A stretch of 12,498 nucleotides of DNA from JBHIER01 sp046760705 [NCBI: bacterium]. Lineage in GTDB: Bacteria; JBHIER01; G020348925. The notes beneath the pieces are model-generated. The model saw only the letters and a program-made list of their open reading frames with translations, was not told where the DNA came from and searched no databases. The position numbers were made by a program, and so were the translations under genes. Numbering within the stretch: position 1 is the stretch's first letter; every line of letters starts with the position of its first letter. The DNA lies in contig JBHIER010000042.1 of the NCBI GenBank assembly GCA_046760705.1, positions 1-12,498 on the forward strand, in the 5' to 3' direction. Positions 232 to 11,594 of this stretch are shown in pieces.

Positions 232-290
232 TGAATCTCCTTTTAGGGGAAGTGGTGGTTCATTTTTGATCAACGTAAGCGCACAGGGAT

Positions 291-1616
291 ATGTTGAGAC
301 GAACCTTTAAGGGCGGGGCCCATCCTCCTGAATGGAAGCAGTTCACCGAATCGAAGCCGATCGTGGACCTGGAAATGGTGCAGCGGGTGGTCGTTCCCCT
401 GCAGCAACACTTGGGGGCCCCCTCTGAGGCGATTGTCAAGAAAGGCGACGAGGTGAGGACCGGCCAGCCCATCAGCGAAGCCAAGGGCTTTGTCTCCGTC
501 CCTTCCCACGCTTCCATTACAGGGAAGGTGACGGCTGTGGAGCCCATGGACCATCCCCTGGGCAGCAAGGTGGTCTCGGTAGTCATTGAGGGGGAAGGTG
601 TCGATGTGTGGGACGATTCAATCCGACCCCAGGAGAGTATCGATCAATTGAGCCCGAAGGACTTAGTGGGTATGATCCAGCAGGCTGGCTTGGCGGGGAT
701 GGGTGGGGCTGCCTTTCCCACCCACGTGAAGCTGTCGCCTCCCCCGGATAAGCCCATCGAGATCGCCATCCTCAACGGGGCAGAATGTGAACCGTATCTC
801 ACCGCCGACCATCGACTGATGTTGGAGCAGCCGGAGGAGATTCTCTACGGATTCAAGCTCGTTATGAGAATATTGGGGGTGAAGCGAGGGGTTGTGGCCA
901 TTGAGGCCAACAAACCGGACGCGGTGAAGGCACTCTCAGCCTTGATCAAAGCAGAGAACAACATATCCCTGGTGAAGCTTCCTGTTAAATATCCCCAGGG
1001 GGCGGAGAAGCAGCTCATCAAGGCGCTCACCGGCCGGGAAGTGCCCCCGGGGGGGCTGCCCATGGACGTGGCCTGTCTGGTCCATAATGTGGGGACGGCC
1101 AAGGCCGTTCACGATGCCGTCACCCAGCGAAAGCCGCTCATTGAGCGGGTCGTCACAGTGACAGGCCCTGGAGTCACGGAGCCTAAAAACCTCCGCGTCC
1201 GCATCGGTACGCCCTTCAGTGAGCTCATCGACGCCTGCGGCGGGTACCGGGGAGAGGTGGGCAAACTGGTCATGGGCGGTCCGATGATGGGCCTGGCCCA
1301 GGACACCGACCAGGTGCCGGTGATTAAGGGGACGTCCGGAATCGTTGTGGTCGACGAAAAGGGTGCCTCCATCGGCAGGGCCCGAACCTGCATCTCCTGC
1401 GCCAGATGCGTGGATGCCTGTCCGATGAACTTGGTGCCCACCACCCTGGGGAAATTGGTGGAGAAAGAACGCTTCGATGAGGCCAGGGACAACGGTCTCC
1501 AAGATTGCATCGAGTGCGGGTGCTGCGCATACGTGTGCCCGTCAAAGATCAATCTGGTCCATCTGTTTAAGTTTGGCAAGGCCGAGATTATGGCCGCGGA
1601 GAGGAAAGCCGGATGA
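291..1616 (+). CDS. rnfC: Rnf complex subunit RnfC (NADH-binding, two 4Fe-4S clusters)
   Basis: RnfC is the peripheral subunit that exchanges electrons with NAD(H) in the ion-translocating ferredoxin:NAD oxidoreductase. The N-terminus (FKGGAHPPEWK) is typical of the RnfC barrel-sandwich domain. A nucleotide/FMN-binding 51-kDa-like fold follows, with the glycine-rich GLAGMGGAAFPT at residues 133-144 and NGAECEP at about 162-168. An SLBB-like segment comes next. The C-terminus has two ferredoxin motifs: C367-C370-C373-C377 and C406-C409-C412-C416. At 441 residues it is the short form, without the long Ala/Lys-rich tail of proteobacterial RnfC. ATG 291 is chosen because an in-frame stop lies at 276-278; AGGG sits only two bases upstream, so TTG 294 is an alternative start. 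The stop overlaps the rnfD start (ATGA). Confidence 0.96.
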   Translation: MLRRTFKGGAHPPEWKQFTESKPIVDLEMVQRVVVPLQQHLGAPSEAIVKKGDEVRTGQPISEAKGFVSVPSHASITGKVTAVEPMDHPLGSKVVSVVIEGEGVDVWDDSIRPQESIDQLSPKDLVGMIQQAGLAGMGGAAFPTHVKLSPPPDKPIEIAILNGAECEPYLTADHRLMLEQPEEILYGFKLVMRILGVKRGVVAIEANKPDAVKALSALIKAENNISLVKLPVKYPQGAEKQLIKALTGREVPPGGLPMDVACLVHNVGTAKAVHDAVTQRKPLIERVVTVTGPGVTEPKNLRVRIGTPFSELIDACGGYRGEVGKLVMGGPMMGLAQDTDQVPVIKGTSGIVVVDEKGASIGRARTCISCARCVDACPMNLVPTTLGKLVEKERFDEARDNGLQDCIECGCCAYVCPSKINLVHLFKFGKAEIMAAERKAG

Positions 1617-2701
1617 GAGGGACGAACGGCCAAGAGGTATCCACTGAGGGCTTGAAATCGACAGGGGGTGGGGAGGAAAGAGCCGGCCGGCTCCTTCTCG
1701 TCTCCTCCTCTCCCCACATCAGGGACGATGTCTCGGTGCCGAGAATAATGTATTCGGTCCTCATCGCCCTTCTACCGGCTTTGGTCGGGTCGGTCTACTT
1801 TTTCGGGTTTCGGGCCTTGTGGTTGATCCTCATTGCCGTTGCTACGGCCGTGATGACGGAGGCTCTGCTCCAGAAAGTGATGGGCCGGCCGGTCACCGTC
1901 ACCGACGGCAGTGCCATCATCACCGGCACCCTTCTGGCCTTCAATCTGCCGGGCGGGGTCCCCTATTGGATGCCAGCGGTGGGATCGGCCTTCGCCATAG
2001 CCATAGGCAAGATGGTCTTCGGAGGGCTGGGGTACAATCCCCTCAATCCGGCTCTGCTCGGTCGAGCTTTTCTGCTGGCCTCGTGGCCGGTGCACATGAC
2101 TACCGATTGGATTCCGACCACTTCGGGCACCATGACGGGATTCGATACGGTCACCCGGGCCACGCCGCTCAATCTGTTGAAGGAGGCTCACCGAGCCTTG
2201 GCCGACCCGGGTGCAACTGCGGACAAGATCACTCAGGCCAGGGAGGCGATCGAACAGCTCTCCACCGCCTCCGGCAATCTCTTCTGGGGAAATGTGAGCG
2301 GGTGCATCGGTGAGACATCCGCGGTTCTCCTGCTCTTAGGGGCTGCCTATCTTCTTTATAAGAAATATATTGATTGGCGGATACCGCTCCTCTATATTGC
2401 CTCTGTGGCCCTGCTGACGTGGATCTTCAGTGGAACAGGGGCGGCCTTCAGCGGTGACCCCCTCTTCCACGTTCTGGCCGGCGGGCTCGTTCTCGGCGCC
2501 TTTTTCATGGCCACGGATATGGTGACGACACCGGTGACGGTAAAGGGAAGATACATCTTCGGTATCGGGTGCGGCTTTCTGACGGTGGTCATTCGCCTCT
2601 GGGGCGGATACCCTGAGGGGGTCTCCTATTCGATCCTGTTGATGAACGGCTTTACGCCTCTCATCGACCGGTGGACCAGGCCGAAACGTTTTGGAGCATA
2701 A
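1613..2701 (+). CDS. rnfD: Rnf complex membrane subunit RnfD (covalent FMN)
   Basis: RnfD is the NqrB-like integral membrane subunit that carries covalently bound FMN and takes part in ion translocation. The 362-residue product has a hydrophilic N-terminus of about 35 residues, then LLLVSSSPHIR, a typical RnfD entry motif, and multiple hydrophobic helices. Family signatures include DGSAIITGTLLAFNLPGG and GYNPLNPALLGRAFLLASWP. The probable flavin-bearing residue is T184 in TRATPL, close to the position of the flavinylated threonine in characterised RnfD proteins. The start codon overlaps the rnfC stop by four bases, which suggests translational coupling. The first 30 residues are poorly conserved-looking (Gly/Glu-rich), so a shorter start cannot be ruled out. 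Confidence 0.95.
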   Translation: MRGTNGQEVSTEGLKSTGGGEERAGRLLLVSSSPHIRDDVSVPRIMYSVLIALLPALVGSVYFFGFRALWLILIAVATAVMTEALLQKVMGRPVTVTDGSAIITGTLLAFNLPGGVPYWMPAVGSAFAIAIGKMVFGGLGYNPLNPALLGRAFLLASWPVHMTTDWIPTTSGTMTGFDTVTRATPLNLLKEAHRALADPGATADKITQAREAIEQLSTASGNLFWGNVSGCIGETSAVLLLLGAAYLLYKKYIDWRIPLLYIASVALLTWIFSGTGAAFSGDPLFHVLAGGLVLGAFFMATDMVTTPVTVKGRYIFGIGCGFLTVVIRLWGGYPEGVSYSILLMNGFTPLIDRWTRPKRFGA

Positions 2702-2716
2702 GTTTTGGAGAGCCCG

Positions 2717-3349
2717 ATGAAGTCGTTGACCCCATTGATTGTTGCCCTGACAGCCGTCTGCTTGGGAGCGGCCTTGGCCCTTTCCCTGGTCAATTTTTTG
2801 ACGGCAGATCGTATCAGGCAGCAGGAGTGGATGGCCACCATGAAGGCCATCCGATCGGTGCTGCCGCCCTTTGACAACGATCCGGTCCAGGATACGAGAA
2901 CGATCCTGGTCTCCACCGACGCCCGCGGCCGTCCTGAGAGCTTAAAGGTCTATCTGGGTAAGATGGGCGATCAGATCACTGGGGTGGCTTTCTCCCGGAA
3001 GGGGGAGGGGTACGGCGGTTTTATCCATGTTATGATGGGCATCGATGTGGACGGTCGGATCAGCAACATCTTCATTCTGCCCGGCCATTTCGAGACGCCC
3101 GGGTTGGGGGCCAATATTGAGAGGCCCAGCTTTACTGAACAGTTTAAAGGTAAGTCGCTGAGAAGCGCGAAGCTGGTGGCAGGAAACCTGGCCGTGGACA
3201 AGGACGGCGGGGATATTGAGGCCATATCCGGGGCCACGATCTCACCCCGAGGGGTAACCAGAGCGGTGAGCGAAGGGCTCCACCTCTTCCAGCGGTTCCA
3301 GGCGGAACTCGTCGGCCCACCCCCGGCAGAGGAGAGCGAACCACAATGA
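2717..3349 (+). CDS. rnfG: Rnf complex subunit RnfG (covalent FMN, periplasmic domain)
   Basis: RnfG is a single-span subunit with an FMN-binding domain on the outer face of the membrane. The start at ATG 2717 is preferred over the upstream TTG 2705 because GGAG at 2707-2710 sits six bases before it; this gives 210 residues, the usual size. Residues about 5-27 form the membrane anchor. The flavinylation motif SGATISPRGVT is intact, with T174 as the expected phosphoester-linked residue, matching the position in characterised RnfG proteins. GGFIHVMMGIDVDGRI and FETPGLGANI are typical of the FMN-binding domain. The gene begins 15 bases after rnfD and ends in an ATGA overlap with rnfE. Confidence 0.95.
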   Translation: MKSLTPLIVALTAVCLGAALALSLVNFLTADRIRQQEWMATMKAIRSVLPPFDNDPVQDTRTILVSTDARGRPESLKVYLGKMGDQITGVAFSRKGEGYGGFIHVMMGIDVDGRISNIFILPGHFETPGLGANIERPSFTEQFKGKSLRSAKLVAGNLAVDKDGGDIEAISGATISPRGVTRAVSEGLHLFQRFQAELVGPPPAEESEPQ

Positions 3350-3942
3350 GGCTGTGGAGAGATTTTAGCAAAGGGATTATTGATGAGAATCCGCTGTTGC
3401 GTCTGGTCTTAGGCATGTGCCCGGCCCTGGCGGTGACCAATGAGGCAAAGAACGGCTTGGCCATGGGCTTGGCCACCGCGGCTGTCCTGGTCGGATCGAA
3501 CCTGGTCATCGCCGCCCTGCGCAAGCTCATTCCGGCCCGGGTGCGCATTCCTGTGTTCATCGTCGTCATCGCCTCCTTTGTGACCATCATCGATATGACC
3601 ATGCACGCCTTCTTCCTGGAACTGCACCGGGTGTTGGGGCTTTTTGTGCCCCTCATTGTGGTCAACTGCATCATTCTCGGCCGCGCCGAGGCCTTCGCCT
3701 CCAAGCGGCCTGTGGTCAACTCGCTCTTCGATGGGCTGGGAATGGGGGTGGGGTTCACGCTGGCGCTCATCGTTTTGGGTGCGGTGCGTGAGATCTTTGG
3801 CTACGGGACCATCTTTGGGCTGAGGGTCCTCGGCCCTGACTACGAACCGGCGCTCATAATGATTCTTCCCCCCGGAGCATTCCTGGCCTTAGGGCTCCTT
3901 TTGGGATTGATGAATAAGCTCACAAAGAAGGAGGAGACTTAG
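3346..3942 (+). CDS. rnfE: Rnf complex membrane subunit RnfE
   Basis: RnfE is one of two homologous six-helix subunits (with RnfA) that form the membrane core of Rnf. Together they hold a membrane-embedded iron-sulfur cluster on the electron path between the two faces. The 198-residue product has N-terminal ENPLLRLVLGMCPALAVTN, with C25 in the first helix, and VVNCIILGRAEAFA, with C108; these cysteines match the conserved cluster ligands of the RnfA/RnfE pair. The start overlaps the rnfG stop (ATGA), and GGAGAG lies upstream within rnfG. The charged tail NKLTKKEET ends two bases before the rnfA start. Confidence 0.95.
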   Translation: MRLWRDFSKGIIDENPLLRLVLGMCPALAVTNEAKNGLAMGLATAAVLVGSNLVIAALRKLIPARVRIPVFIVVIASFVTIIDMTMHAFFLELHRVLGLFVPLIVVNCIILGRAEAFASKRPVVNSLFDGLGMGVGFTLALIVLGAVREIFGYGTIFGLRVLGPDYEPALIMILPPGAFLALGLLLGLMNKLTKKEET

Positions 3943-3944
3943 AG

Positions 3945-4526
3945 ATGGCTGAATTGGTAGTCATCTTTATCGGCGCTGCTCTGGTCAACAACTTCGTGCT
4001 GGCCAGATTTTTGGGCATCTGCCCCTTTCTGGGGGTGTCCAAGAAGACCGATACGGCCCTCGGCATGGGGATGGCCGTCATCTTTGTCATGACGTTGGCC
4101 GCAGTCGGCACGTTCCTCATCTACCATTTCATCCTGATCCCTCTCGGCCTCGGGTTTCTGCAGATTGTCTCCTTCATTCTCATTATCGCCTCTCTGGTGC
4201 AACTGGTGGAGACCTTTCTGCGCAAGGTGAGTCCGGCCCTTTACAAGGGCCTGGGAATTTATCTTCCGCTGATCACTACCAACTGCGCCATCTTAGGGTT
4301 GGCTCTGCTCAATGTGATCAAGGGGTATGACTTCATCAGGTCTGTCGTCTTCGCCGTCGGAGCCGGCATCGGCTTCACCATTGCCTTGATCATAATGTCG
4401 GGCATCCGCGAGCGGCTTGAGTTCGCGGATGTGCCGGGACCCCTGAGGGGGACACCGATAGCCCTCGTCGTGGCTGGCCTGTTGGCCATCGTTTTTCTCG
4501 GATTTACCGGATTGGTGAAGCTGTAG
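3945..4526 (+). CDS. rnfA: Rnf complex membrane subunit RnfA
   Basis: RnfA is the partner of RnfE in the membrane core; the two are homologous and inserted in opposite orientations. The 193-residue product shows NNFVLARFLGICPFLGVSK, with C26, and TTNCAILGLALLN, with C114, the conserved pair expected to bind the membrane iron-sulfur cluster. Six hydrophobic segments fill the sequence, and GAGIGFTIALIIMSGIRERL is a typical late motif. A strong AAGGAGGAG site at the end of rnfE drives translation. Only two bases separate it from rnfE and 19 from rnfB. Confidence 0.96.
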   Translation: MAELVVIFIGAALVNNFVLARFLGICPFLGVSKKTDTALGMGMAVIFVMTLAAVGTFLIYHFILIPLGLGFLQIVSFILIIASLVQLVETFLRKVSPALYKGLGIYLPLITTNCAILGLALLNVIKGYDFIRSVVFAVGAGIGFTIALIIMSGIRERLEFADVPGPLRGTPIALVVAGLLAIVFLGFTGLVKL

Positions 4527-4545
4527 GAACACACTCTGGGGGTGA

Positions 4546-5370
4546 ATGGAGATGCCTGTCAGTCTCTTCTACGCCCTCCTCTCTCTGGGCGGACTGGGCC
4601 TTCTGTTCGGCTTTGGATTGGCTTTTGCCTCGAAGCGGTTTGCCGTCTCCGTCGATCCGAAGATTGAGCAGGTTCTCGACGCCTTGCCTGGAACCAACTG
4701 TGGCGCCTGCGGGTGTCCCGGATGTTCGGGGTTTGCCGAGGCCGTCGTCGGAGCTCGGGTGCTCATTACAGCCTGTAGGCCCGGTGGGCCGGAGGTGGCC
4801 CAAAAGATCGCCGAGATCATGGGTGTCCAGGTGGGAGAAGTGGTCCCGGAAGTGGCCTCTGTGCAGTGCCAAGGCGGCCGAAGAGAGGCCAAGGAGAAAT
4901 GCCGCTACGAGGGCCTCGAAGACTGTGGGGCCGCCGAATTGATCGCCGGCGGTTCGAAGGCCTGTCAGTACGGATGCTTGGGCCTCGGCGACTGCGTCCG
5001 AGCCTGCCCCTACGAGGCACTGGTCATGGGCGACGACAGGCTGCCCGTTGTCCTTGAGGAGAAGTGCACAGCCTGCGGGCTCTGCGTCCAGGCCTGCCCC
5101 CGGGGGATTATGCAGCTCATACCCAAGAGCGCCAAAGTCTATCTCGGCTGCGTCTCCCAGGATCGGGGCAAAGCGGTCAAGAAAATCTGCACCGTAGGGT
5201 GCACAGGATGTACCCTGTGTGCCAGCCCCAAGGTCACCCCGTCAGGGGCCATCCGGATGAAGGGGAACCTCCCCGTGATCGACTATACCATAGAGGGCGA
5301 TCTCGATAACGCTGTCAAAAAGTGCCCCACCCAGAGCTACGTTGTAAGAGGGCCAAGAGCCGTCACCTGA
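4546..5370 (+). CDS. rnfB: Rnf complex subunit RnfB (polyferredoxin entry point)
   Basis: RnfB accepts electrons from reduced ferredoxin and passes them into the Rnf membrane core. An N-terminal membrane anchor (about residues 5-28) is followed by a four-cysteine Fe-S domain: C52, C55 and C60 in GTNCGACGCPGC plus C77. Next come ferredoxin motifs around CQYGCLGLGDCVRACP and CTACGLCVQACP, then a C-terminal cysteine group including CTVGCTGCTLC and VKKCP. There are 22 cysteines in 274 residues, enough for at least five 4Fe-4S clusters, as in the longer clostridial/Thermotoga-type RnfB rather than the short proteobacterial form. ATG 4552 is an alternative start with better spacing from GGGGGTG at 4538-4544. 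It is the last rnf gene; no terminator follows before tatC. Confidence 0.95.
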   Translation: MEMPVSLFYALLSLGGLGLLFGFGLAFASKRFAVSVDPKIEQVLDALPGTNCGACGCPGCSGFAEAVVGARVLITACRPGGPEVAQKIAEIMGVQVGEVVPEVASVQCQGGRREAKEKCRYEGLEDCGAAELIAGGSKACQYGCLGLGDCVRACPYEALVMGDDRLPVVLEEKCTACGLCVQACPRGIMQLIPKSAKVYLGCVSQDRGKAVKKICTVGCTGCTLCASPKVTPSGAIRMKGNLPVIDYTIEGDLDNAVKKCPTQSYVVRGPRAVT

Positions 5371-5415
5371 CAATGGTCTGTACTGTCTCTCAGCTATGTC
5401 TGCCATCCGTTGACT

Positions 5416-6189
5416 ATGGTTCTCCAGAAAAGTAGCGAGGAGGAGAAGACCTCCAAGGAGATGTCTTTTTTAGACCACCTCGAGGAGCTGAGATGGCGTC
5501 TGATCAAATCGCTGGCGGCAATAGCCGTCGGGGCCATCGTCTGCTTCATCTTCTCCGGTCACATTTTAGACTTTTTGACCTTCCCGGTGCATGCAATCAA
5601 ACCTGTTCCGAAACTGATCTTTCTCTCCCCCACCGGCATGTTTTTCGTTCGGATCGTCATTTCGTTCGCCTGCGGTCTCATCATCGCTCTCCCGGTCGTC
5701 GTCTACCAGACGTATGCCTTCATTGTTCCCGGCCTGTACCCTCAAGAGAGAAGATACGTGTTTCCGATCATTCTTTTGACCATGGTCTGTTTCCTCGCCG
5801 GCAGCGGGTTCGCCTATTTTTTGATCGTCCCCTTCGGTCTAAAATTTTTGCTCGGTCTGGCCACCCCGGATATCGAGCCGCAATTGGATGTGGGCCGCTA
5901 CATCGGTTTTGTGACCAGACTCATGTTGGCCTTCGGTATCGTCTTTGAGCTGCCAGTGCTCTCCCTTTTCCTGACAAAGATCGGTCTTTTGACCCCGCGC
6001 TTTTTGCGCAAGAACCGGAGATACGCCGTCGTGATTATCGCCGTCGGCGCGGCCATTCTCACCCCTCCTGATATTTTCACTCAACTGATGATGGTCGTCC
6101 CCCTGGTGCTCCTGTATGAAGTGAGCATCCTGCTTTCAGCGGTGGTCTACAAAAGGGAACAGGAGGCCTTGAGAAAAGCGCTGGAATAG
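5416..6189 (+). CDS. tatC: Twin-arginine translocase subunit TatC
   Basis: TatC is the six-helix membrane receptor that recognises twin-arginine signal peptides and, with TatA, exports folded and often cofactor-containing proteins. Family signatures are present: SFLDHLEELRWRLI near the N-terminus; the YQTYAFIVPGLYPQERR block with E111; FELPVLSLFLTKIG with E178; and TPPD at 216-219 before the last helices. The 257-residue length is typical. The start is uncertain: TTG 5410, ATG 5416 and ATG 5461 are in frame, and none has an ideally spaced ribosome binding site. The ORF starts 45 bases after rnfB with no terminator between them, so read-through from the rnf operon is likely. No tatA or tatB is visible in the window. 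Confidence 0.94.
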   Translation: MVLQKSSEEEKTSKEMSFLDHLEELRWRLIKSLAAIAVGAIVCFIFSGHILDFLTFPVHAIKPVPKLIFLSPTGMFFVRIVISFACGLIIALPVVVYQTYAFIVPGLYPQERRYVFPIILLTMVCFLAGSGFAYFLIVPFGLKFLLGLATPDIEPQLDVGRYIGFVTRLMLAFGIVFELPVLSLFLTKIGLLTPRFLRKNRRYAVVIIAVGAAILTPPDIFTQLMMVVPLVLLYEVSILLSAVVYKREQEALRKALE

Positions 6190-6296: not shown

Positions 6297-6313
6297 AAGA
6301 AAGGAGGAGATTG

Positions 6314-6418
6314 GTGGGTTTCTGGCTCGTATTCGTCCTGTTTGGCATACCGGGTTGTATCGTAGCTCTGGCAGTGGCCCTCTATTTTCTATGCGCGGAG
6401 GAGGAGAATGGGGGGTGA
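6314..6418 (+). CDS. 34-residue single-span membrane protein preceding the symporter
   Basis: A short ORF starts at GTG 6314, six bases after AGGAGG at 6302-6307, a strong, well-spaced ribosome binding site. TTG 6311 is a less likely start. The product is almost one transmembrane helix: GFWLVFVLFGIPGCIV, then ALAVALYFL, ending in the acidic tail CAEEENGG. The TGA at 6416-6418 overlaps the symporter start at 6408 by 11 bases, and the Glu codons encoding its tail (GGAGGAGGAG, 6397-6406) double as the symporter ribosome binding site. This architecture argues for a real, translationally coupled gene. Tiny helices encoded before SSS and NSS transporters are known as symporter small accessory or small-subunit proteins. 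This one may be such an accessory subunit, but I do not recognise its sequence as belonging to a named family. Confidence 0.68.
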   Translation: MGFWLVFVLFGIPGCIVALAVALYFLCAEEENGG

Positions 6419-7913
6419 GGGGACACACATTGGCGATCCGGTGGCCTTGGTGGCGTTCGTAAGCTATCTGATCTTCATGGTTCTCATCGGGATTTTCGCG
6501 GCCAAATTTGTCTCCGGCTCCTTGGGCGACTTCTTTCTCGGCGGCCGGAGGATGAAGGATTACGTGGTAGCCCTGAGCGCGGTGGTTTCAGGCAGGTCGG
6601 CCTGGCTCATCCTCGGTGTGAGCGGCCTGGCCTACGTGCGCGGTGTCTCGGCGGTGTGGGCGGTAGTGGGGTACATTCTCGTGGAGCTTTTTCTTTTCCT
6701 CTTCGTGGGCAAGCGACTGCGGCGCTACACGGCCAGAAGGGGGGACATCACCCTCCCGGACTTCTTCGAGTCGCGATTCAAGGACAATCGGCACATTCTG
6801 CGGGTCGTTTCTGCGGTCATCATCGTCGTCTTCATGGTCGCCTATGTTTCGGCGCAGTTGACTGCTGGGGGCAAGGCATTCTCTTCCAGCTTCGGCCTCT
6901 CTCCGATGGAGGGGCTGTGGCTCACGGCCGGGATAGTGCTCATCTACACGATGCTGGGAGGTTTTTTGGCCGTCTCTCTGACCGATGTCCTGCAGGCGAT
7001 CTTCATGCTCATTGGATTGGTCGTATTGCCGTGGGTGGCTATCGCCCGGTTTGGTGGGCTGGAGAGGGTAATCGCCCAGTTGGGGTCGGCCGACGCTCTC
7101 ATGCTCGACCCTTGGTCTGTGGGTCTGGGTGGGCTGGTAGGTTTTATCGGCATTGGCCTCGGCTCTCCGGGCAACCCTCACATCTTGGTCCGATACATGT
7201 CTGTGGAGAACCCGGCCCAGCTCCGAAGGTCGGCTCTGCTGGGCACCGTGTGGAACGTGCTCATGGCCTGGGGGGCCATACTGACCGGCTTAGTGGGACG
7301 GGCTACTTACCCGGCCAGAGAGATTCTGCCCTCTGCCGACACCGAAAATCTGTACACTTTTTTGGCGGCGAGCCACTTTCCTCCGCTCTTCTTCGGTCTG
7401 ACGGTGGCGGCCGTCTTCGCCGCCATCATGTCCACGGCCGACTCGCAACTTTTGGTAGCCTCCTCTGGCGCCGTCAGGGATATCTACCAGAGGCTGTTCA
7501 AACAGGGCTCGGACCTTTCGGGGCCTGAGATGGTAGCCATCAGCCGGGTCACAGTCTTCGTTCTCGTACTTTTGGCTATTGGGCTGGGGGTGGTGGCCAA
7601 AGGTCTCATCTTCTGGCTCGTTCTCTTCGCCTGGGGTGGCCTCGGGGCCTCCTTCGGTCCGGCGGTGATTCTGTCCCTCTTCTGGTCCAGGATCACCCGG
7701 TGGGGAGTTCTGGCCGGTTTTCTCTCCGGAACAGCGGTGACCGTCTTCTGGCGTCTTATCCCGGCCCTGAAGGCCATCACATACGAGCTCGTCCCCGGTT
7801 TCATTGTCTCGGCACTGCTGGTGGTTGGCGTCAGCCTGTTGACCGCCCCTCCCCCGGAGGCCCGCCTCGAAATCCAGCTCATCAGCCCCACATACAGGTT
7901 CGGACGAAAATAG
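6408..7913 (+). CDS. SSS-family (PutP-like) sodium:solute symporter
   Basis: The 501-residue product is an integral membrane transporter of the solute:sodium symporter family with about 13 helices. Recognisable blocks are FFLGGRRMKDYVVALSAV near the first helices, DITLPDFFESRF, LTAGGKAFSSSFGLS, MLGGFLAVSLTDVLQAIFM, GSPGNPHILVRYM and FAAIMSTADSQLLVASS. In the last, S342 and T343 align with the sodium-site Ser340/Thr341 of E. coli PutP. In contrast, the SGRSAWL segment places G62 and R63 where PutP has the sodium-linked Asp55 and Met56. The substrate is therefore uncertain; proline or another small organic solute is plausible, but I would not assign it. Translation is coupled to the 34-codon ORF upstream through an 11-base overlap and a GGAGG site at 6397-6401. 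Confidence 0.92.
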   Translation: MGGEGTHIGDPVALVAFVSYLIFMVLIGIFAAKFVSGSLGDFFLGGRRMKDYVVALSAVVSGRSAWLILGVSGLAYVRGVSAVWAVVGYILVELFLFLFVGKRLRRYTARRGDITLPDFFESRFKDNRHILRVVSAVIIVVFMVAYVSAQLTAGGKAFSSSFGLSPMEGLWLTAGIVLIYTMLGGFLAVSLTDVLQAIFMLIGLVVLPWVAIARFGGLERVIAQLGSADALMLDPWSVGLGGLVGFIGIGLGSPGNPHILVRYMSVENPAQLRRSALLGTVWNVLMAWGAILTGLVGRATYPAREILPSADTENLYTFLAASHFPPLFFGLTVAAVFAAIMSTADSQLLVASSGAVRDIYQRLFKQGSDLSGPEMVAISRVTVFVLVLLAIGLGVVAKGLIFWLVLFAWGGLGASFGPAVILSLFWSRITRWGVLAGFLSGTAVTVFWRLIPALKAITYELVPGFIVSALLVVGVSLLTAPPPEARLEIQLISPTYRFGRK

Positions 7914-7946: not shown

Positions 7947-8121
7947 CATGAGGTTTCTCGGATATGAGTCCGCAGCTTTAGTATCTGGTCTTTTGTTCTT
8001 TGCCTCTCGCCGATTCTTAACCTTCTAATGCCGTCTTTGCCCTCTTCTCCCCTCTCATAAAGCATAGTGATTTTTGCCATTCAAGAGTTTATGTTTGCTT
8101 ACGATTAAAAGAGGAATTGGT

Positions 8122-8523
8122 ATGAAAAGAATAATCCTTGCCTCTGCCGTCATATTTATCATCTCCCTTGGTTATATTGGTTATAGCGCTATCAGAAACC
8201 ACGGTCATAGCAGAAACAATAGTCGTAATAGTATCCGAAACAATGATTACATCAGTATCAGAGATCATCAAGAGTGGGCAGACAGTTATTGTGGTCTTGT
8301 TGATATTGATGTGACGCTTTCCTCCATCCCTGAGTTGAATGAGGTTGTAGCTGTGACTGCCACTTTTACTGTCATAAAAGACCTTCGGGATCACGAGCCG
8401 ACGGATGAGGCACGAATTACCTTACCGACAGGGTTAAAATTTGTAAGTCAACGGGGCCAATCACATTCAATTCAAGGCGGTATCGGATATCAAGCTGCCT
8501 GCCTCGATTGTGGTTCAAGTTGA
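8122..8523 (+). CDS. N-terminal fragment of the interrupted exported protein
   Basis: The 133-codon frame contains a lipophilic signal sequence at residues 1-24, then a low-complexity Asn/Arg/Ser stretch (about 27-46), then a beta-sandwich-like segment ending TARITLPTGLKFVSQ-type sequence (read here as DEARITLPTGLKFVSQ). Sequence after residue 111 (GQSHSIQGG onward) looks out of frame, because the same DNA in the next frame gives sensible protein (DIKLPASIVVQVEDDGEWEE). Base composition is more AT-rich than in the flanking operons. ATG 8122 is preferred over the upstream ATG at 8074 because it has a ribosome binding site and begins the signal peptide. Confidence 0.55.
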   Translation: MKRIILASAVIFIISLGYIGYSAIRNHGHSRNNSRNSIRNNDYISIRDHQEWADSYCGLVDIDVTLSSIPELNEVVAVTATFTVIKDLRDHEPTDEARITLPTGLKFVSQRGQSHSIQGGIGYQAACLDCGSS

Positions 8524-9082
8524 AGATGATGGTGAATGGGAGGAAGTAAGGTCGATCCATCCTCGCTCCCATTGGGCAGTCGATCTGGTGGACTTGTCTG
8601 GATATCTTCAGGGGAATGAGAAGGATGTGAGGCTGAAGCTCTATTGGACGGCCCATCACAAGATCGATTATGCTGGGCTGATGAGGGAGGTTCCGGCGCA
8701 GAGTCATGCCCAGCCGTGCTCTCTGCTGTCGGCAGTCCATTCCACAGAGGGTTCTGTCACAGACAGACTGGATGCGATCGACCAATGGTATGCTGAGTTG
8801 GTCCCCCAGGACACTTTGACCCTTTCCTTTTCGTCCAATCCTGTGGATGGAAATAAGGCCAGAGACTTCGTCCTGGTAGCCAGAGGTCATTATGTGATGG
8901 GGGACAGCATGGGTGGGCCTTTGCCCAAGGCCCTTTCGATCACGCCCCCGGAGTTGCCCTCAGAATTTTTCCTCTCCCAGAACTATCCTAACCCCTTTAA
9001 CCCCGTTACTACCATCCGCTACGCCCTGCCGGAGGCGAGAAGCCAGATGCAAGAAGCAAGATGTCCATCCACGTCACCCTGA
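8510..9082 (+). CDS. Middle fragment of the interrupted exported protein
   Basis: The frame is open from 8447, and GTG 8510 is only its first start codon. Upstream in-frame residues (FKAVSDIKLPASIVVQVE) are plausible protein, and no ribosome binding site precedes 8510, so this is a continuation, not a separate gene. It carries a beta-rich domain (HWAVDLVDLSGYLQGNEKDV, LYWTAHHKIDYAGL), a Pro/Gly-rich hinge, and the start of the sorting domain (SQNYPNPFNPVTTIRYALPE). It then runs into a repeat-encoded RSQMQEARCPSTSP tail and a stop at 9080-9082, instead of continuing into the domain. Confidence 0.55.
   Translation: MVQVEDDGEWEEVRSIHPRSHWAVDLVDLSGYLQGNEKDVRLKLYWTAHHKIDYAGLMREVPAQSHAQPCSLLSAVHSTEGSVTDRLDAIDQWYAELVPQDTLTLSFSSNPVDGNKARDFVLVARGHYVMGDSMGGPLPKALSITPPELPSEFFLSQNYPNPFNPVTTIRYALPEARSQMQEARCPSTSP
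9038..9065 (+). repeat. 14-bp imperfect tandem duplication causing a frameshift
   Basis: AGAAGCCAGATGCA (9038-9051) is followed directly by AGAAGCAAGATGTC (9052-9065); the first 12 bases match at 11 positions. Fourteen is not a multiple of three, and removing one unit puts the upstream frame (LPEA) in register with the downstream frame (VTLKIYN). The duplication therefore accounts for the second frame change in the secreted-protein gene. Similar AGAAGCAAGATGC-type units occur, as I recall, as dispersed repeats in some bacterial genomes. Confidence 0.75.
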
Positions 9083-9270
9083 AGATTTACAACTTGCTCG
9101 GTCAGGAGGTGCGGACATTGGTTAGACTGAAAGAAGCTGGATATTACACCGTCATATGGGACAGTCAGGACGATCGGGGCTTGGATGTCTCCAGCGGGAT
9201 CTACTTCTATCGGTTGTCTGTAGACAGTGGTCGGTGGGCGGATACCAAGCGCATGGTGCTGCTGAAATAA
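9061..9270 (+). CDS. C-terminal fragment of the interrupted exported protein (rest of sorting domain)
   Basis: This 69-codon frame encodes VTLKIYNLLGQEVRTLV, then EAGYYTVIWDSQDDRG and SSGIYFYRL, ending KRMVLLK. It is the second half of the FlgD-Ig-like C-terminal domain whose first half lies in the preceding frame. ATG 9061 falls inside the second copy of a duplicated 14-mer and has no proper ribosome binding site, so independent translation is unlikely. Canonical domains run from LPE directly into VTLKIYN, which supports joining the two frames. Confidence 0.55.
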   Translation: MSIHVTLKIYNLLGQEVRTLVRLKEAGYYTVIWDSQDDRGLDVSSGIYFYRLSVDSGRWADTKRMVLLK

Positions 9271-9339: not shown

Positions 9340-9368
9340 TTGACTATGAGCCGCCTTTGTTGTATTCT
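9340..9368 (+). promoter_or_regulatory. Promoter of the metallopeptidase-like gene
   Basis: TTGACT at 9340-9345 and TATTCT at 9363-9368 are separated by 17 bases and lie just after the terminator. Transcription would begin near 9375, leaving a leader of about 70 bases before GTG 9447. The placement makes the peptidase gene an independent transcription unit. Confidence 0.72.
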
Positions 9369-9446
9369 AAAAGGCCACGACGATATCGCTATCCTCCGTG
9401 CGGATGGCGAAACAGGTGTCCTCTCTTTTCCGAAAGGAGTTTTGTC

Positions 9447-11594
9447 GTGAAGCGATTATTGTATGTATGGATGAACCTCACTGCTGCGCTCCAGTGGACC
9501 CTTCGGGGCGGGGCGGTGGGACTGCTGAGCCTGGTGTTGGTCTTCTCACTCGTAACGGAAGGGATTGGAATGGCTCAAGTCACTTTCATCGACGAGGCGC
9601 AGATGGGGGCCGTGGTCGACGATCTTGTGGCCACCCACGGTGAGGGTGAACGCGCCAGGATTGAGAAGGGTGTGCGTCAAGTGGCCCAGTTCTGGAGGGA
9701 GGAGGACGGCAGCGGGGAGGAGTTTGCCCAGTTTTGCAAAGAGTACTACATCGCAGATCCAAAATCTCTTCAAGAGACGGCTGACCGATACGAAGCCGTC
9801 TTCGAGAGTATTTTTGGACACTTGAGGGAGATGAGGCGGGACCTGCACTGGCACCTCGATGTAGAAACTGGTCCAATCCTTCCCGTTGATTATCTGTTCG
9901 CCCAATATTCGCCCTGGGCCCACGTCAACGAGGACTTTTTCAGGACGAAGATTGCTTTCGCTACCCTTTTGAATTTCCCCCTCTATACCCTGAAGGAGCG
10001 TTTGCAACTGGGGCCAACGTGGACGCGGGAGCAGTGGGCCCAGGCCCGTCTCGTTGAGACCTTCTCCGCCCGGGTTCCGCCTGAGGTGTCGCAGCAAATC
10101 AACCGGGCCTTTGTCACGGCTGACAACTACATCAGCCAATACAATATTTACATGCATCACCTGCTGACTCCCGATGGAGGTCGGCCATTTTCCAAAGGGC
10201 TCAAGCTGATCAGCCACTGGAATCTGCGCGATGAACTGAAGGCCCTATATGCCGACCCGGAGGGGCTGCCCAAGCAGGAGATGATCTACCAGGTGATGGA
10301 AAAGATCATCAGGCAGCAGATCCCGGCGGCCGTGATAAACAACCCGGCTGTGGACTGGACCCTGGCCACCAACGAGGTGACCATCTCCCCGGTGGTCGAT
10401 GGGGATGTCCCGGCCGCATGGAAAGGGGAAGGAGAGCCTGGAACCGTTGTTGACAGTGCACCGGAGCCGGATACCCGGTATGCGCACCTGCTGGATATCT
10501 TCAAAGCGGAGCGCGGGGCCGATCCGTACTATCCGACCATGCCCACCATGATGGACCGCCGGTTTCAGAGGGACCGGGAGATTCCGGAGGCCAGGGTGGA
10601 AGCACTTTTTGAATCCGTGCTCACTTCTCCTGCCCTCGCTAAGACTGCCAGACTGATTGCGCAGCGGCTGGGTCGCAAACTCCGTCCCTTCGACATCTGG
10701 TACAACGGATTCAAGGCGCGAGGGGCTTACAAAGAGGAAGAGTTGGACAAAATCGTCTCCCAGAAGTACCCGACGGTAGAGTCCTTTCAGGCCGACCTTC
10801 CCAATTTGCTCCGCAAGCTGGGGTTTTCCGAGGAGACAGCGCAATTCTTGGTTTCCAAGATTGCCGTTGACCCGTCCCGGGGAGCCGGACATGCCATGGG
10901 CCCAGGCCGGCGGGTGGATAAAGCCCACTTACGCACAAGGATCCCATCCACCGGCATGAACTACAAGGGGTACAATATTGCCCTCCACGAGTTCGGCCAC
11001 AATGTTGAGCAGGTCTTCTCTTTGAACAGGGTTGATCATACCCTATTGCGGGGAGTGCCCAATACCGCCTTCACCGAAGGGTTCGCCTTCGTCTTCCAGT
11101 CTCGCGATTTGGAGCTGCTGGGTCTCACCAAGGAAGACCCTATGGCTGAACATTTGAAGGCCCTGGACAACCTGTGGGCAACCGCTGAGATTGCCAGTGT
11201 GGCCCTGGTGGATATGGGGGTCTGGCATTGGATGTATGACCATCCCGAGGCCAGTCCACGGGAACTAAAAGAAGCGGTGATCGATATCGCTAAAGATATC
11301 TGGAACCGTTACTACGCTCCGATCTTTGGAATTGAAGACTTCGATCTCTTGGCCATCTATTCCCACATGATCGACGCGGGCCTCTATCTGCCCGACTACC
11401 CTCTGGGTTACATCATCGCCTTTCAGGTGGAAGAGCATATGAGGAAGGGCAACCTGGCTGAGGAGATGGAGCGGATGTGCCGCCTGGGTTCCGTCACGCC
11501 AGATCTGTGGATGCAGCAAGCAGTTGGCCAGCCCATCTCCGTCGAGCCGATGCTTCAGGCAGCGGAAGAGGCATTGGAGGTGATTAAAGAGTGA
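9447..11594 (+). CDS. Exported HExxH zinc metallopeptidase-like protein (M3-like gluzincin)
   Basis: The gene encodes 715 residues from GTG 9447, chosen because AAAGGAG at 9433-9439 is seven bases upstream and the hydrophobic signal segment follows (about residues 21-37, possible cleavage after GMA at 41-43). The ORF is open further upstream from ATG 9357, but that would place the promoter inside the gene. The mature part is mainly helical, with about 470 residues before the active site. The catalytic motif is ALHEFGHNVEQ, with zinc ligands H514 and H518 and catalytic E515. FTEGFAFVFQ supplies the likely third ligand E544, 26 residues after H518. This spacing and the overall helical character resemble family M3 (thimet/oligoendopeptidase clan MA), so a peptide-degrading enzyme of the envelope or outside is likely. 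Substrate and exact family are unknown. Confidence 0.85.
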   Translation: MKRLLYVWMNLTAALQWTLRGGAVGLLSLVLVFSLVTEGIGMAQVTFIDEAQMGAVVDDLVATHGEGERARIEKGVRQVAQFWREEDGSGEEFAQFCKEYYIADPKSLQETADRYEAVFESIFGHLREMRRDLHWHLDVETGPILPVDYLFAQYSPWAHVNEDFFRTKIAFATLLNFPLYTLKERLQLGPTWTREQWAQARLVETFSARVPPEVSQQINRAFVTADNYISQYNIYMHHLLTPDGGRPFSKGLKLISHWNLRDELKALYADPEGLPKQEMIYQVMEKIIRQQIPAAVINNPAVDWTLATNEVTISPVVDGDVPAAWKGEGEPGTVVDSAPEPDTRYAHLLDIFKAERGADPYYPTMPTMMDRRFQRDREIPEARVEALFESVLTSPALAKTARLIAQRLGRKLRPFDIWYNGFKARGAYKEEELDKIVSQKYPTVESFQADLPNLLRKLGFSEETAQFLVSKIAVDPSRGAGHAMGPGRRVDKAHLRTRIPSTGMNYKGYNIALHEFGHNVEQVFSLNRVDHTLLRGVPNTAFTEGFAFVFQSRDLELLGLTKEDPMAEHLKALDNLWATAEIASVALVDMGVWHWMYDHPEASPRELKEAVIDIAKDIWNRYYAPIFGIEDFDLLAIYSHMIDAGLYLPDYPLGYIIAFQVEEHMRKGNLAEEMERMCRLGSVTPDLWMQQAVGQPISVEPMLQAAEEALEVIKE

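What the first reader, a model, noticed from the sequence alone, without database searches (positions are those of the whole stretch)
6300..6420. Untracked 34-residue membrane ORF translationally coupled to a PutP-like symporter
A strong, well-spaced AGGAGG precedes GTG 6314. The peptide is essentially one transmembrane helix with an acidic tail, and its Glu codons double as the ribosome binding site of the symporter, whose start overlaps it by 11 bases. This dense architecture is hard to explain by chance. Small accessory helices are known for some SSS and NSS transporters, but this sequence (FGIPGCIVALAV core) does not match one I can name. It may be an undescribed accessory-subunit family.
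Basis: partly seen in the sequence, partly recalled or inferred. Interest (0 to 1): 0.72.

Follow-up and report, generated by a model that had tools for sequence, protein, structure and literature searches.

The report
One-helix helper protein for a symporter
A tiny, easily overlooked gene of 34 codons encodes a single membrane-spanning helix that many distantly related bacteria keep next to one particular type of nutrient transporter, so it is probably a small helper subunit of that transporter.

Summary
The ORF is real. GTG 6314 to TGA 6418 has AGGAGG six bases upstream, encodes one transmembrane helix, and overlaps the symporter ATG 6408 by 11 bases. Of 81 loci with this symporter (window plus 80), 59 carry a homologous ORF upstream, 24-35 aa in 58 and 60 aa in one. 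It shows an invariant Pro, consensus F..MF.LP..II..A..LA, N-out/C-in charges, codon-level purifying selection and conservation concentrated on one helix face. Of 80 genomes searched, 58 have one match each at E<=1e-3; 57 lie at the symporter. Twelve carrier genomes hold 113 SSF matches but one small gene each. No Pfam or NCBIfam model matches convincingly. The partner is not PutP: 81 of 81 read S-G-R-S-[ASV]-W where E. coli PutP reads S-D-M-S-G-W. Most likely a new family of single-helix accessory subunit, working like CbrX on CbrA or MAP17 on SGLT2. Expression, binding and substrate are untested; 22 of 81 loci lack it.

The parts
6302..6307 (+). Shine-Dalgarno AGGAGG of the small ORF, 6 nt before GTG
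   Evidence: sequence
6314..6418 (+). small ORF, 34 aa single-helix membrane protein (accessory subunit candidate)
   Evidence: translation (there from TTG 6311); homologues; selection; AF2 helix 3-33
6350..6352 (+). codon of the family-invariant Pro (residue 13)
   Evidence: 59 of 59 homologues; invariant in A1 and A3
6397..6401 (+). Shine-Dalgarno GGAGG of the symporter, inside the Ala/Glu codons of the small ORF
   Evidence: sequence
6408..6418 (+). 11-base overlap of small ORF and symporter
6408..7913 (+). SSF/SLC5 symporter, PutP-like but a distinct subfamily
   Evidence: Pfam PF00474 278.2 bits; TIGR02121 415.6 bits, below its cut-off of 515.5; AF2 mean pLDDT 87.7
6591..6596 (+). codons of Gly62-Arg63 of the symporter, in place of PutP Asp55-Met56, at the break of core helix 1
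   Evidence: residues 63-64 non-helical in the model

Best explanation
The ORF encodes a single-pass membrane protein, N-out/C-in, that is a dedicated accessory subunit of the adjacent SLC5/SSS symporter. Ribosomes ending the small ORF re-initiate on, or free, the symporter start, so both are made together at the membrane (inferred from overlap and Shine-Dalgarno layout). The helix, bent or hinged near its invariant Pro, docks through its conserved face (-4, -3, -1, 0, +3, +4, +7, +10 relative to Pro) against the outside of the 13-helix symporter and helps it fold, stay stable or stay in an active state. Shown: a conserved coding family under purifying selection, strict linkage to one symporter subfamily, and helical periodicity in conservation. 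Inferred: translation, topology, binding, stabilising role. Unknown: the substrate and the docking site.
For: 59 of 81 symporter loci have it (L003 assigned by eye; L005 pattern hit dropped as spurious). The profile separates these from all else in the loci: weakest member 28.6 bits, best other stretch 11.6 bits among 23,541 six-frame pieces, members being the training set. Five-fold cross-validation recovers 55 of 59 at E<1e-3 and 59 of 59 at E<=10. Genome-wide: 58 of 80 genomes have one match each at E<=1e-3, 57 at the symporter (the query alignment A1 contains 37 of these loci's peptides). Twelve carrier genomes hold 113 SSF matches (some are fragments) and 12 copies of the small gene. pN<pS in 4 of 4, 25 of 26 and 256 of 261 pairs of the three closest bins, and in 880 of 897 and 519 of 523 of the others; window versus L001 pS 0.49, pN 0.19. 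Conservation moment at 100 degrees 7.65 against 3.43 shuffled, p 0.012. Lys/Arg 1 N-side, 143 C-side. No other neighbour cluster spans more than 14 loci. Seven of seven ordinary PutP-like controls (E. coli and six plasmid records) have D-M-S-G-W, not G-R-S, and no small gene. Precedents: CbrX bound to SLC5 CbrA (PMC13022988, passages) and MAP17 on SGLT2 (PMC10803289, passages).
Against: 22 of 81 loci have no copy upstream and 21 of those 22 genomes have no match at E<=1e-3 anywhere (mostly metagenome bins that may be incomplete), so the symporter seems able to work without it; the tree needs 9 changes. Without the window and L001 in training the window ORF scores only E 0.003, and in one cross-validation fold the weakest true member (E 2.0) falls below the best unrelated stretch (E 1.3). 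The window copy has no Lys/Arg after the helix, alone among 59, so its topology rests on homology. One genome (G002) has an unlinked copy (L084). Many pairs in the selection test share history, so the counts are not independent. In the closest precedent CbrX was not needed for growth on histidine (PMC13022988). No complex was modelled; no expression data.
Confidence: 0.78

Rival explanations
1. The ORF is a translational-coupling leader: its translation opens the symporter start, and the peptide itself does nothing.
For: Overlap in 37 of 59 loci and a stop-to-start distance of at most 9 nt in 55 of 59 (the ATG nearest the stop was chosen, which favours closeness). For cbrX, a frame-altered peptide of the same length still supported CbrA production to almost the same level (PMC6591292, passages).
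Against: A pure leader needs no amino-acid conservation, yet pN is far below pS, one Pro is invariant in 59 of 59 and conservation follows one helix face. Four of 59 loci keep the same helix at 15-73 nt from the chosen start. The later CbrX structure shows even that peptide bound to its transporter.
Confidence: 0.12
2. A small membrane protein with an independent function that merely shares an operon with the symporter.
For: One genome has an unlinked copy overlapping a different upstream ORF (L084).
Against: 57 of 58 genome matches sit directly upstream of the same symporter in bacteria of many phyla, while no other neighbour is widely shared.
Confidence: 0.06
3. A chance short ORF in the intergenic space.
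For: Very short; weak hold-out score for the window itself; 17 of 461 control ORF starts have a comparable hydrophobic ORF.
Against: Homology, synteny and codon-position constraint in 59 loci.
Confidence: 0.02

Closest known systems
CbrX with CbrA (Pseudomonas; PMC13022988, PMC6591292; passages seen)
   Same: Short hydrophobic ORF overlapping the start of an SLC5-type protein, translationally coupled; cryo-EM shows the peptide on the SLC5 domain (TM3/TM8). CbrA also departs from the canonical Na2 site (Lys196 occupies it; transport not sodium-driven).
   Different: CbrX is about 58 aa and a two-helix hairpin; its partner carries a histidine kinase. Here one helix, 24-35 aa in 58 of 59, and a plain symporter. 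The CbrX sequence was not compared.
NCBIfam NF045580, symporter small accessory protein (33 aa)
   Same: Length, and named as a symporter accessory protein.
   Different: Not reported for any of 38 members; profile comparison with one recalled example sequence finds nothing.
MAP17 (PDZK1IP1) with SGLT2 / SGLT1 (PMC10803289; passages seen)
   Same: Single helix attached to TM13 of an SLC5 transporter; required for full activity and thought to contribute to stability and folding.
   Different: Mammalian, larger and not gene-coupled (recalled); homology not tested.
MetS (NCBIfam NF033493, NF033494)
   Same: Protein of about 30 aa encoded with a LeuT-fold transporter (partly recalled).
   Different: Partner is of the NSS family; not reported for any of 38 members, no profile alignment with one recalled example.
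PutP, sodium/proline symporter (TIGR02121)
   Same: Closest described family of the partner.
   Different: Below the equivalog cut-off; Asp55, Met56, Trp244 and Tyr248 replaced by Gly, Arg, Ile and Ser, each in at least 97% of 81 homologues; E. coli putP and six plasmid PutP-like loci keep D-M-S-G-W and have no small gene of this family.

Membership tests
NF045580 symporter small accessory protein | NCBIfam profile score at or above 35 bits | tested here: not met
   not among the 23 families reported for 38 members at E<=10 (HMMER filters drop weak matches); a recalled example scores 77 bits
MetS family NSS small subunit (NF033493) | NCBIfam profile score at or above 25 bits | tested here: not met
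   not among the families reported; no profile alignment
MetS family NSS small subunit (NF033493) | encoded with an NSS transporter | tested here: not met
   the partner is SSF PF00474
CbrX-like peptide | ORF overlaps the start of an SLC5-domain gene | tested here: met
   11 nt in the window; overlap in 37 of 59 loci
CbrX-like peptide | two-helix hairpin of about 58 aa | tested here: not met
   34 aa, one helix 3-33
CbrX-like peptide | physically bound to the SLC5 domain | not testable with these tools
   no complex prediction available
PutP sodium/proline symporter (partner) | TIGR02121 score at or above 515.5 bits | tested here: not met
   415.6 bits
PutP sodium/proline symporter (partner) | Asp55 and Tyr248, crucial for PutP (PMC7918813, passages) | tested here: not met
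   Gly62 and Ser253 instead; both columns invariant in the 51-row alignment
SSS/SLC5 family (partner) | PF00474 above 22.8 bits and SLC5 fold | tested here: met
   278.2 bits; Foldseek best hit 7wmv_A SGLT1, TMq 0.81

The most novel reading that the evidence does not exclude
The small protein is the dedicated accessory subunit of an undescribed SLC5 subfamily in which an Arg sits at the break of core helix 1 in place of the PutP Asp-Met pair, so that transport is not driven by sodium in the canonical way; the helper helix stabilises or gates this altered transporter, as CbrX may do for CbrA, which is driven by protons.
Probability: 0.25. Interest if true: 0.75.

Novelty: new variant of a known kind. 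Interest (0 to 1): 0.55.

Why it matters
It adds a widespread family of about 30-residue proteins, without a Pfam or NCBIfam model that we could match, to the few known helper helices of SLC5-fold transporters, a fold that includes human drug targets. By record titles carriers include Gemmatimonadota, Balneolota, Acidobacteriota, Aminicenantes, KSB1 and Calditrichota. Because some relatives lack the gene while keeping the symporter, the family gives a natural comparison of the same transporter with and without its helper.

Tried and rejected
Relatives of the window's genome: not available, no genome is held. Phylum-wide search from L001: not possible, because handles reached through loci carry no group (one search covered one genome). 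The distribution therefore rests on the best 80 of 222 symporter matches of one scan, which favours close symporters; more distant ones may differ.

Substrate from gene neighbourhood: rejected. A glutamate-dehydrogenase-like gene (named by recall) lies upstream in 14 loci; the six listed are Balneolaceae, except L029, titled Bacteroidetes but nested among Balneolota in the tree. No neighbour cluster spans more than 14 loci; loci cut by contig ends were not corrected for, and ORFs under 80 codons were not clustered.

Missing transporter helix: rejected, because the model of the symporter alone has the 13-helix layout by my count of its helices.

A fused small-protein/symporter chain for structure prediction was considered and not done: by the charge rule the two termini would lie on opposite membrane faces. 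Correlating symporter columns with loss of the small gene was considered and not run.

Literature: ten searches were answered. No title or abstract start in those (capped) listings concerned this peptide; the library holds open-licence papers only. Only passages of papers were seen, no whole text.

Full report
The observation. At 6314-6418 (+) there is a 34-codon ORF that starts with GTG and ends with TGA (where it is listed from an in-frame TTG at 6311). AGGAGG lies six bases before the GTG; GGAGG, inside the Ala/Glu codons, lies six bases before the symporter ATG at 6408; the two genes share 6408-6418. The nearest homologue supports the GTG. The symporter is a full-length SSF protein (278.2 bits to PF00474). 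It resembles PutP but stays below the PutP equivalog cut-off (415.6 against 515.5 bits). No whole genome is held for the window.

A conserved family. One scan of the genome collection gave 222 stretches encoding a relative of the symporter, of which the best 80 were kept. Scanning upstream of these and of the window, 59 of 81 loci have a homologous short ORF; one (L003) was added by eye, and one pattern hit (L005) was dropped as spurious. With starts chosen by rule, 58 are 24-35 aa and one (L071) is 60 aa. All 59 have a Pro at the same place; Phe at -3 occurs in 56 of 59 and Ile at +3 in 57 of 59. A profile of these finds nothing else convincing in the six-frame translations of the loci: weakest member 28.6 bits, strongest other stretch 11.6 bits, the members being its training set. 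In five-fold cross-validation 59 of 59 are found again at E<=10 and 55 of 59 at E<1e-3; in one fold the weakest member (E 2.0) is no better than the best unrelated stretch (E 1.3). Held out together with its closest relative, the window ORF is found at 17.5 bits, E 0.003: modest by itself, persuasive with its position.

It is coding and constrained. Over 21 ungapped codons, closely related pairs differ mostly at third positions: mean 1.25, 0.25 and 5.5 differences at positions 1, 2 and 3 in the four closest pairs, and pN is below pS in 4 of 4, 25 of 26, 256 of 261, 880 of 897 and 519 of 523 pairs from the closest to the most distant bin. Pairs are not independent. The window and L001 differ at 2, 6 and 9 sites of the three positions, pS 0.49 and pN 0.19. 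Conservation repeats with helical period: the moment at 100 degrees is 7.65 against 3.43 in shuffles (p 0.012), p 0.029 with the Pro column neutralised and 0.019 with 37 non-redundant rows. That is the mark of a helix with one contact face. Charges are one-sided, one Lys/Arg before the helix and 143 after it in 59 sequences, pointing to N-out/C-in; 41 of 59 tails are net positive, 12 net negative, and the window copy alone has no Lys/Arg. AlphaFold2 gives one helix, residues 3-33, mean pLDDT 88.4.

It belongs to this symporter. Searching the 80 whole genomes behind the loci with alignment A1 (38 of the peptides), 58 have a match at E<=1e-3, one per genome, and 57 of these are the copies at the symporter. 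L043 carries the ORF but its genome search did not reach the threshold. The exception is an unlinked copy in G002, the genome of L005, whose symporter lacks one. Twelve of the carrier genomes hold 113 SSF matches (some are fragments) but one small gene each. Comparable hydrophobic short ORFs precede 17 of 461 control ORF starts against 38 of 56 symporter starts scored the same way. Apart from the symporter, no neighbour cluster spans more than 14 loci. Stop and start overlap in 37 of 59 loci and lie within nine bases in 55 of 59, choosing the ATG nearest the stop.

Losses. 22 of 81 loci have no copy upstream; in 21 of these 22 genomes no match reached E<=1e-3 anywhere, with the caution that most are metagenome bins. 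L036 has only 47 bases of upstream sequence, and its genome gave only a weak match (E 0.044). On a tree of 80 symporters and PutP (L006 left out because of an in-frame stop), presence changes 9 times, at least 6 forced by well supported branches; the window groups with L001 (Gemmatimonadota) and L023 (Phycisphaerales). The helper is therefore probably old but dispensable.

The partner is unusual. 81 of 81 symporters read S-G-R-S-[ASV]-W; the scan patterns did not include this stretch. E. coli PutP and six PutP-like loci of plasmids read [SA]-D-M-S-G-W there, and none of the seven stretches holds a small gene of this family: the best profile score is 8.5 bits, within a symporter gene. Asp55 and Tyr248, reported as crucial for PutP (PMC7918813, passages), are Gly and Ser here. 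The Arg lies at the break of core helix 1 in the model (residues 63-64 non-helical, mean pLDDT of the whole model 87.7). That this position contributes to the Na2 site in PutP is recalled, not taken from a call. The TM8 Ser-Thr/Ser pair that I recall as sodium ligands is kept, so loss of sodium coupling is only a possibility. CbrA is a precedent for an SLC5 protein with a basic side chain in the Na2 site and no sodium dependence (PMC13022988, passages).

Known relatives. The window peptide has no NCBIfam match and two Pfam matches at E 0.43 and 0.48, below cut-off. Of 38 members scanned, no family matched more than three, the best E being 0.0048 in NCBIfam and 0.0063 in Pfam, which I read as chance. 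NCBIfam has one family named symporter small accessory protein, NF045580, and the MetS family; neither was reported. By arrangement the closest is CbrX: overlapping, translationally coupled, and seen bound to the SLC5 domain, although not needed for growth on histidine. MAP17 on SGLT2 is the single-helix precedent on the same fold; the best Foldseek matches of the symporter model are SGLT1/2 and CHT1 structures.

Verdict. A real family of single-helix proteins, not described in anything found here, dedicated to a distinct SLC5 subfamily. Accessory subunit is the best reading (0.78); a pure coupling leader is the main rival (0.12) and is disfavoured by amino-acid conservation. Translation, binding and function remain to be shown.

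Noticed in passing
window 6591-6596 and 80 homologous loci: The symporter subfamily has a conserved S-G-R-S-[ASV]-W motif in place of PutP S-D-M-S-G-W, with Ile and Ser for PutP Trp244 and Tyr248: substrate and ion coupling probably differ from PutP although its best NCBIfam match is PutP.
   Followed up: partly
window 291-6189: What looks like an Rnf-type electron transport operon (named by recall) followed by tatC lies directly upstream of the pair; of the loci compared, rnfB and tatC homologues were found only in L001.
   Followed up: partly
window 9357-11594: 745-aa ORF with no Pfam match that contains an HEFGH motif followed by TEGFAF, resembling a zinc metallopeptidase.
   Followed up: no
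window 8074-9270: Overlapping ORFs in different frames look like one interrupted secreted protein with a C-terminal NYPNPFNP...IYNLLGQEV sorting-type domain.
   Followed up: no
L084 (genome G002) about 250-355, minus strand: Unlinked copy of the small gene whose start overlaps another short ORF; the same bin's symporter (L005) has no copy upstream. Could be a relocated gene or bin contamination.
   Followed up: partly
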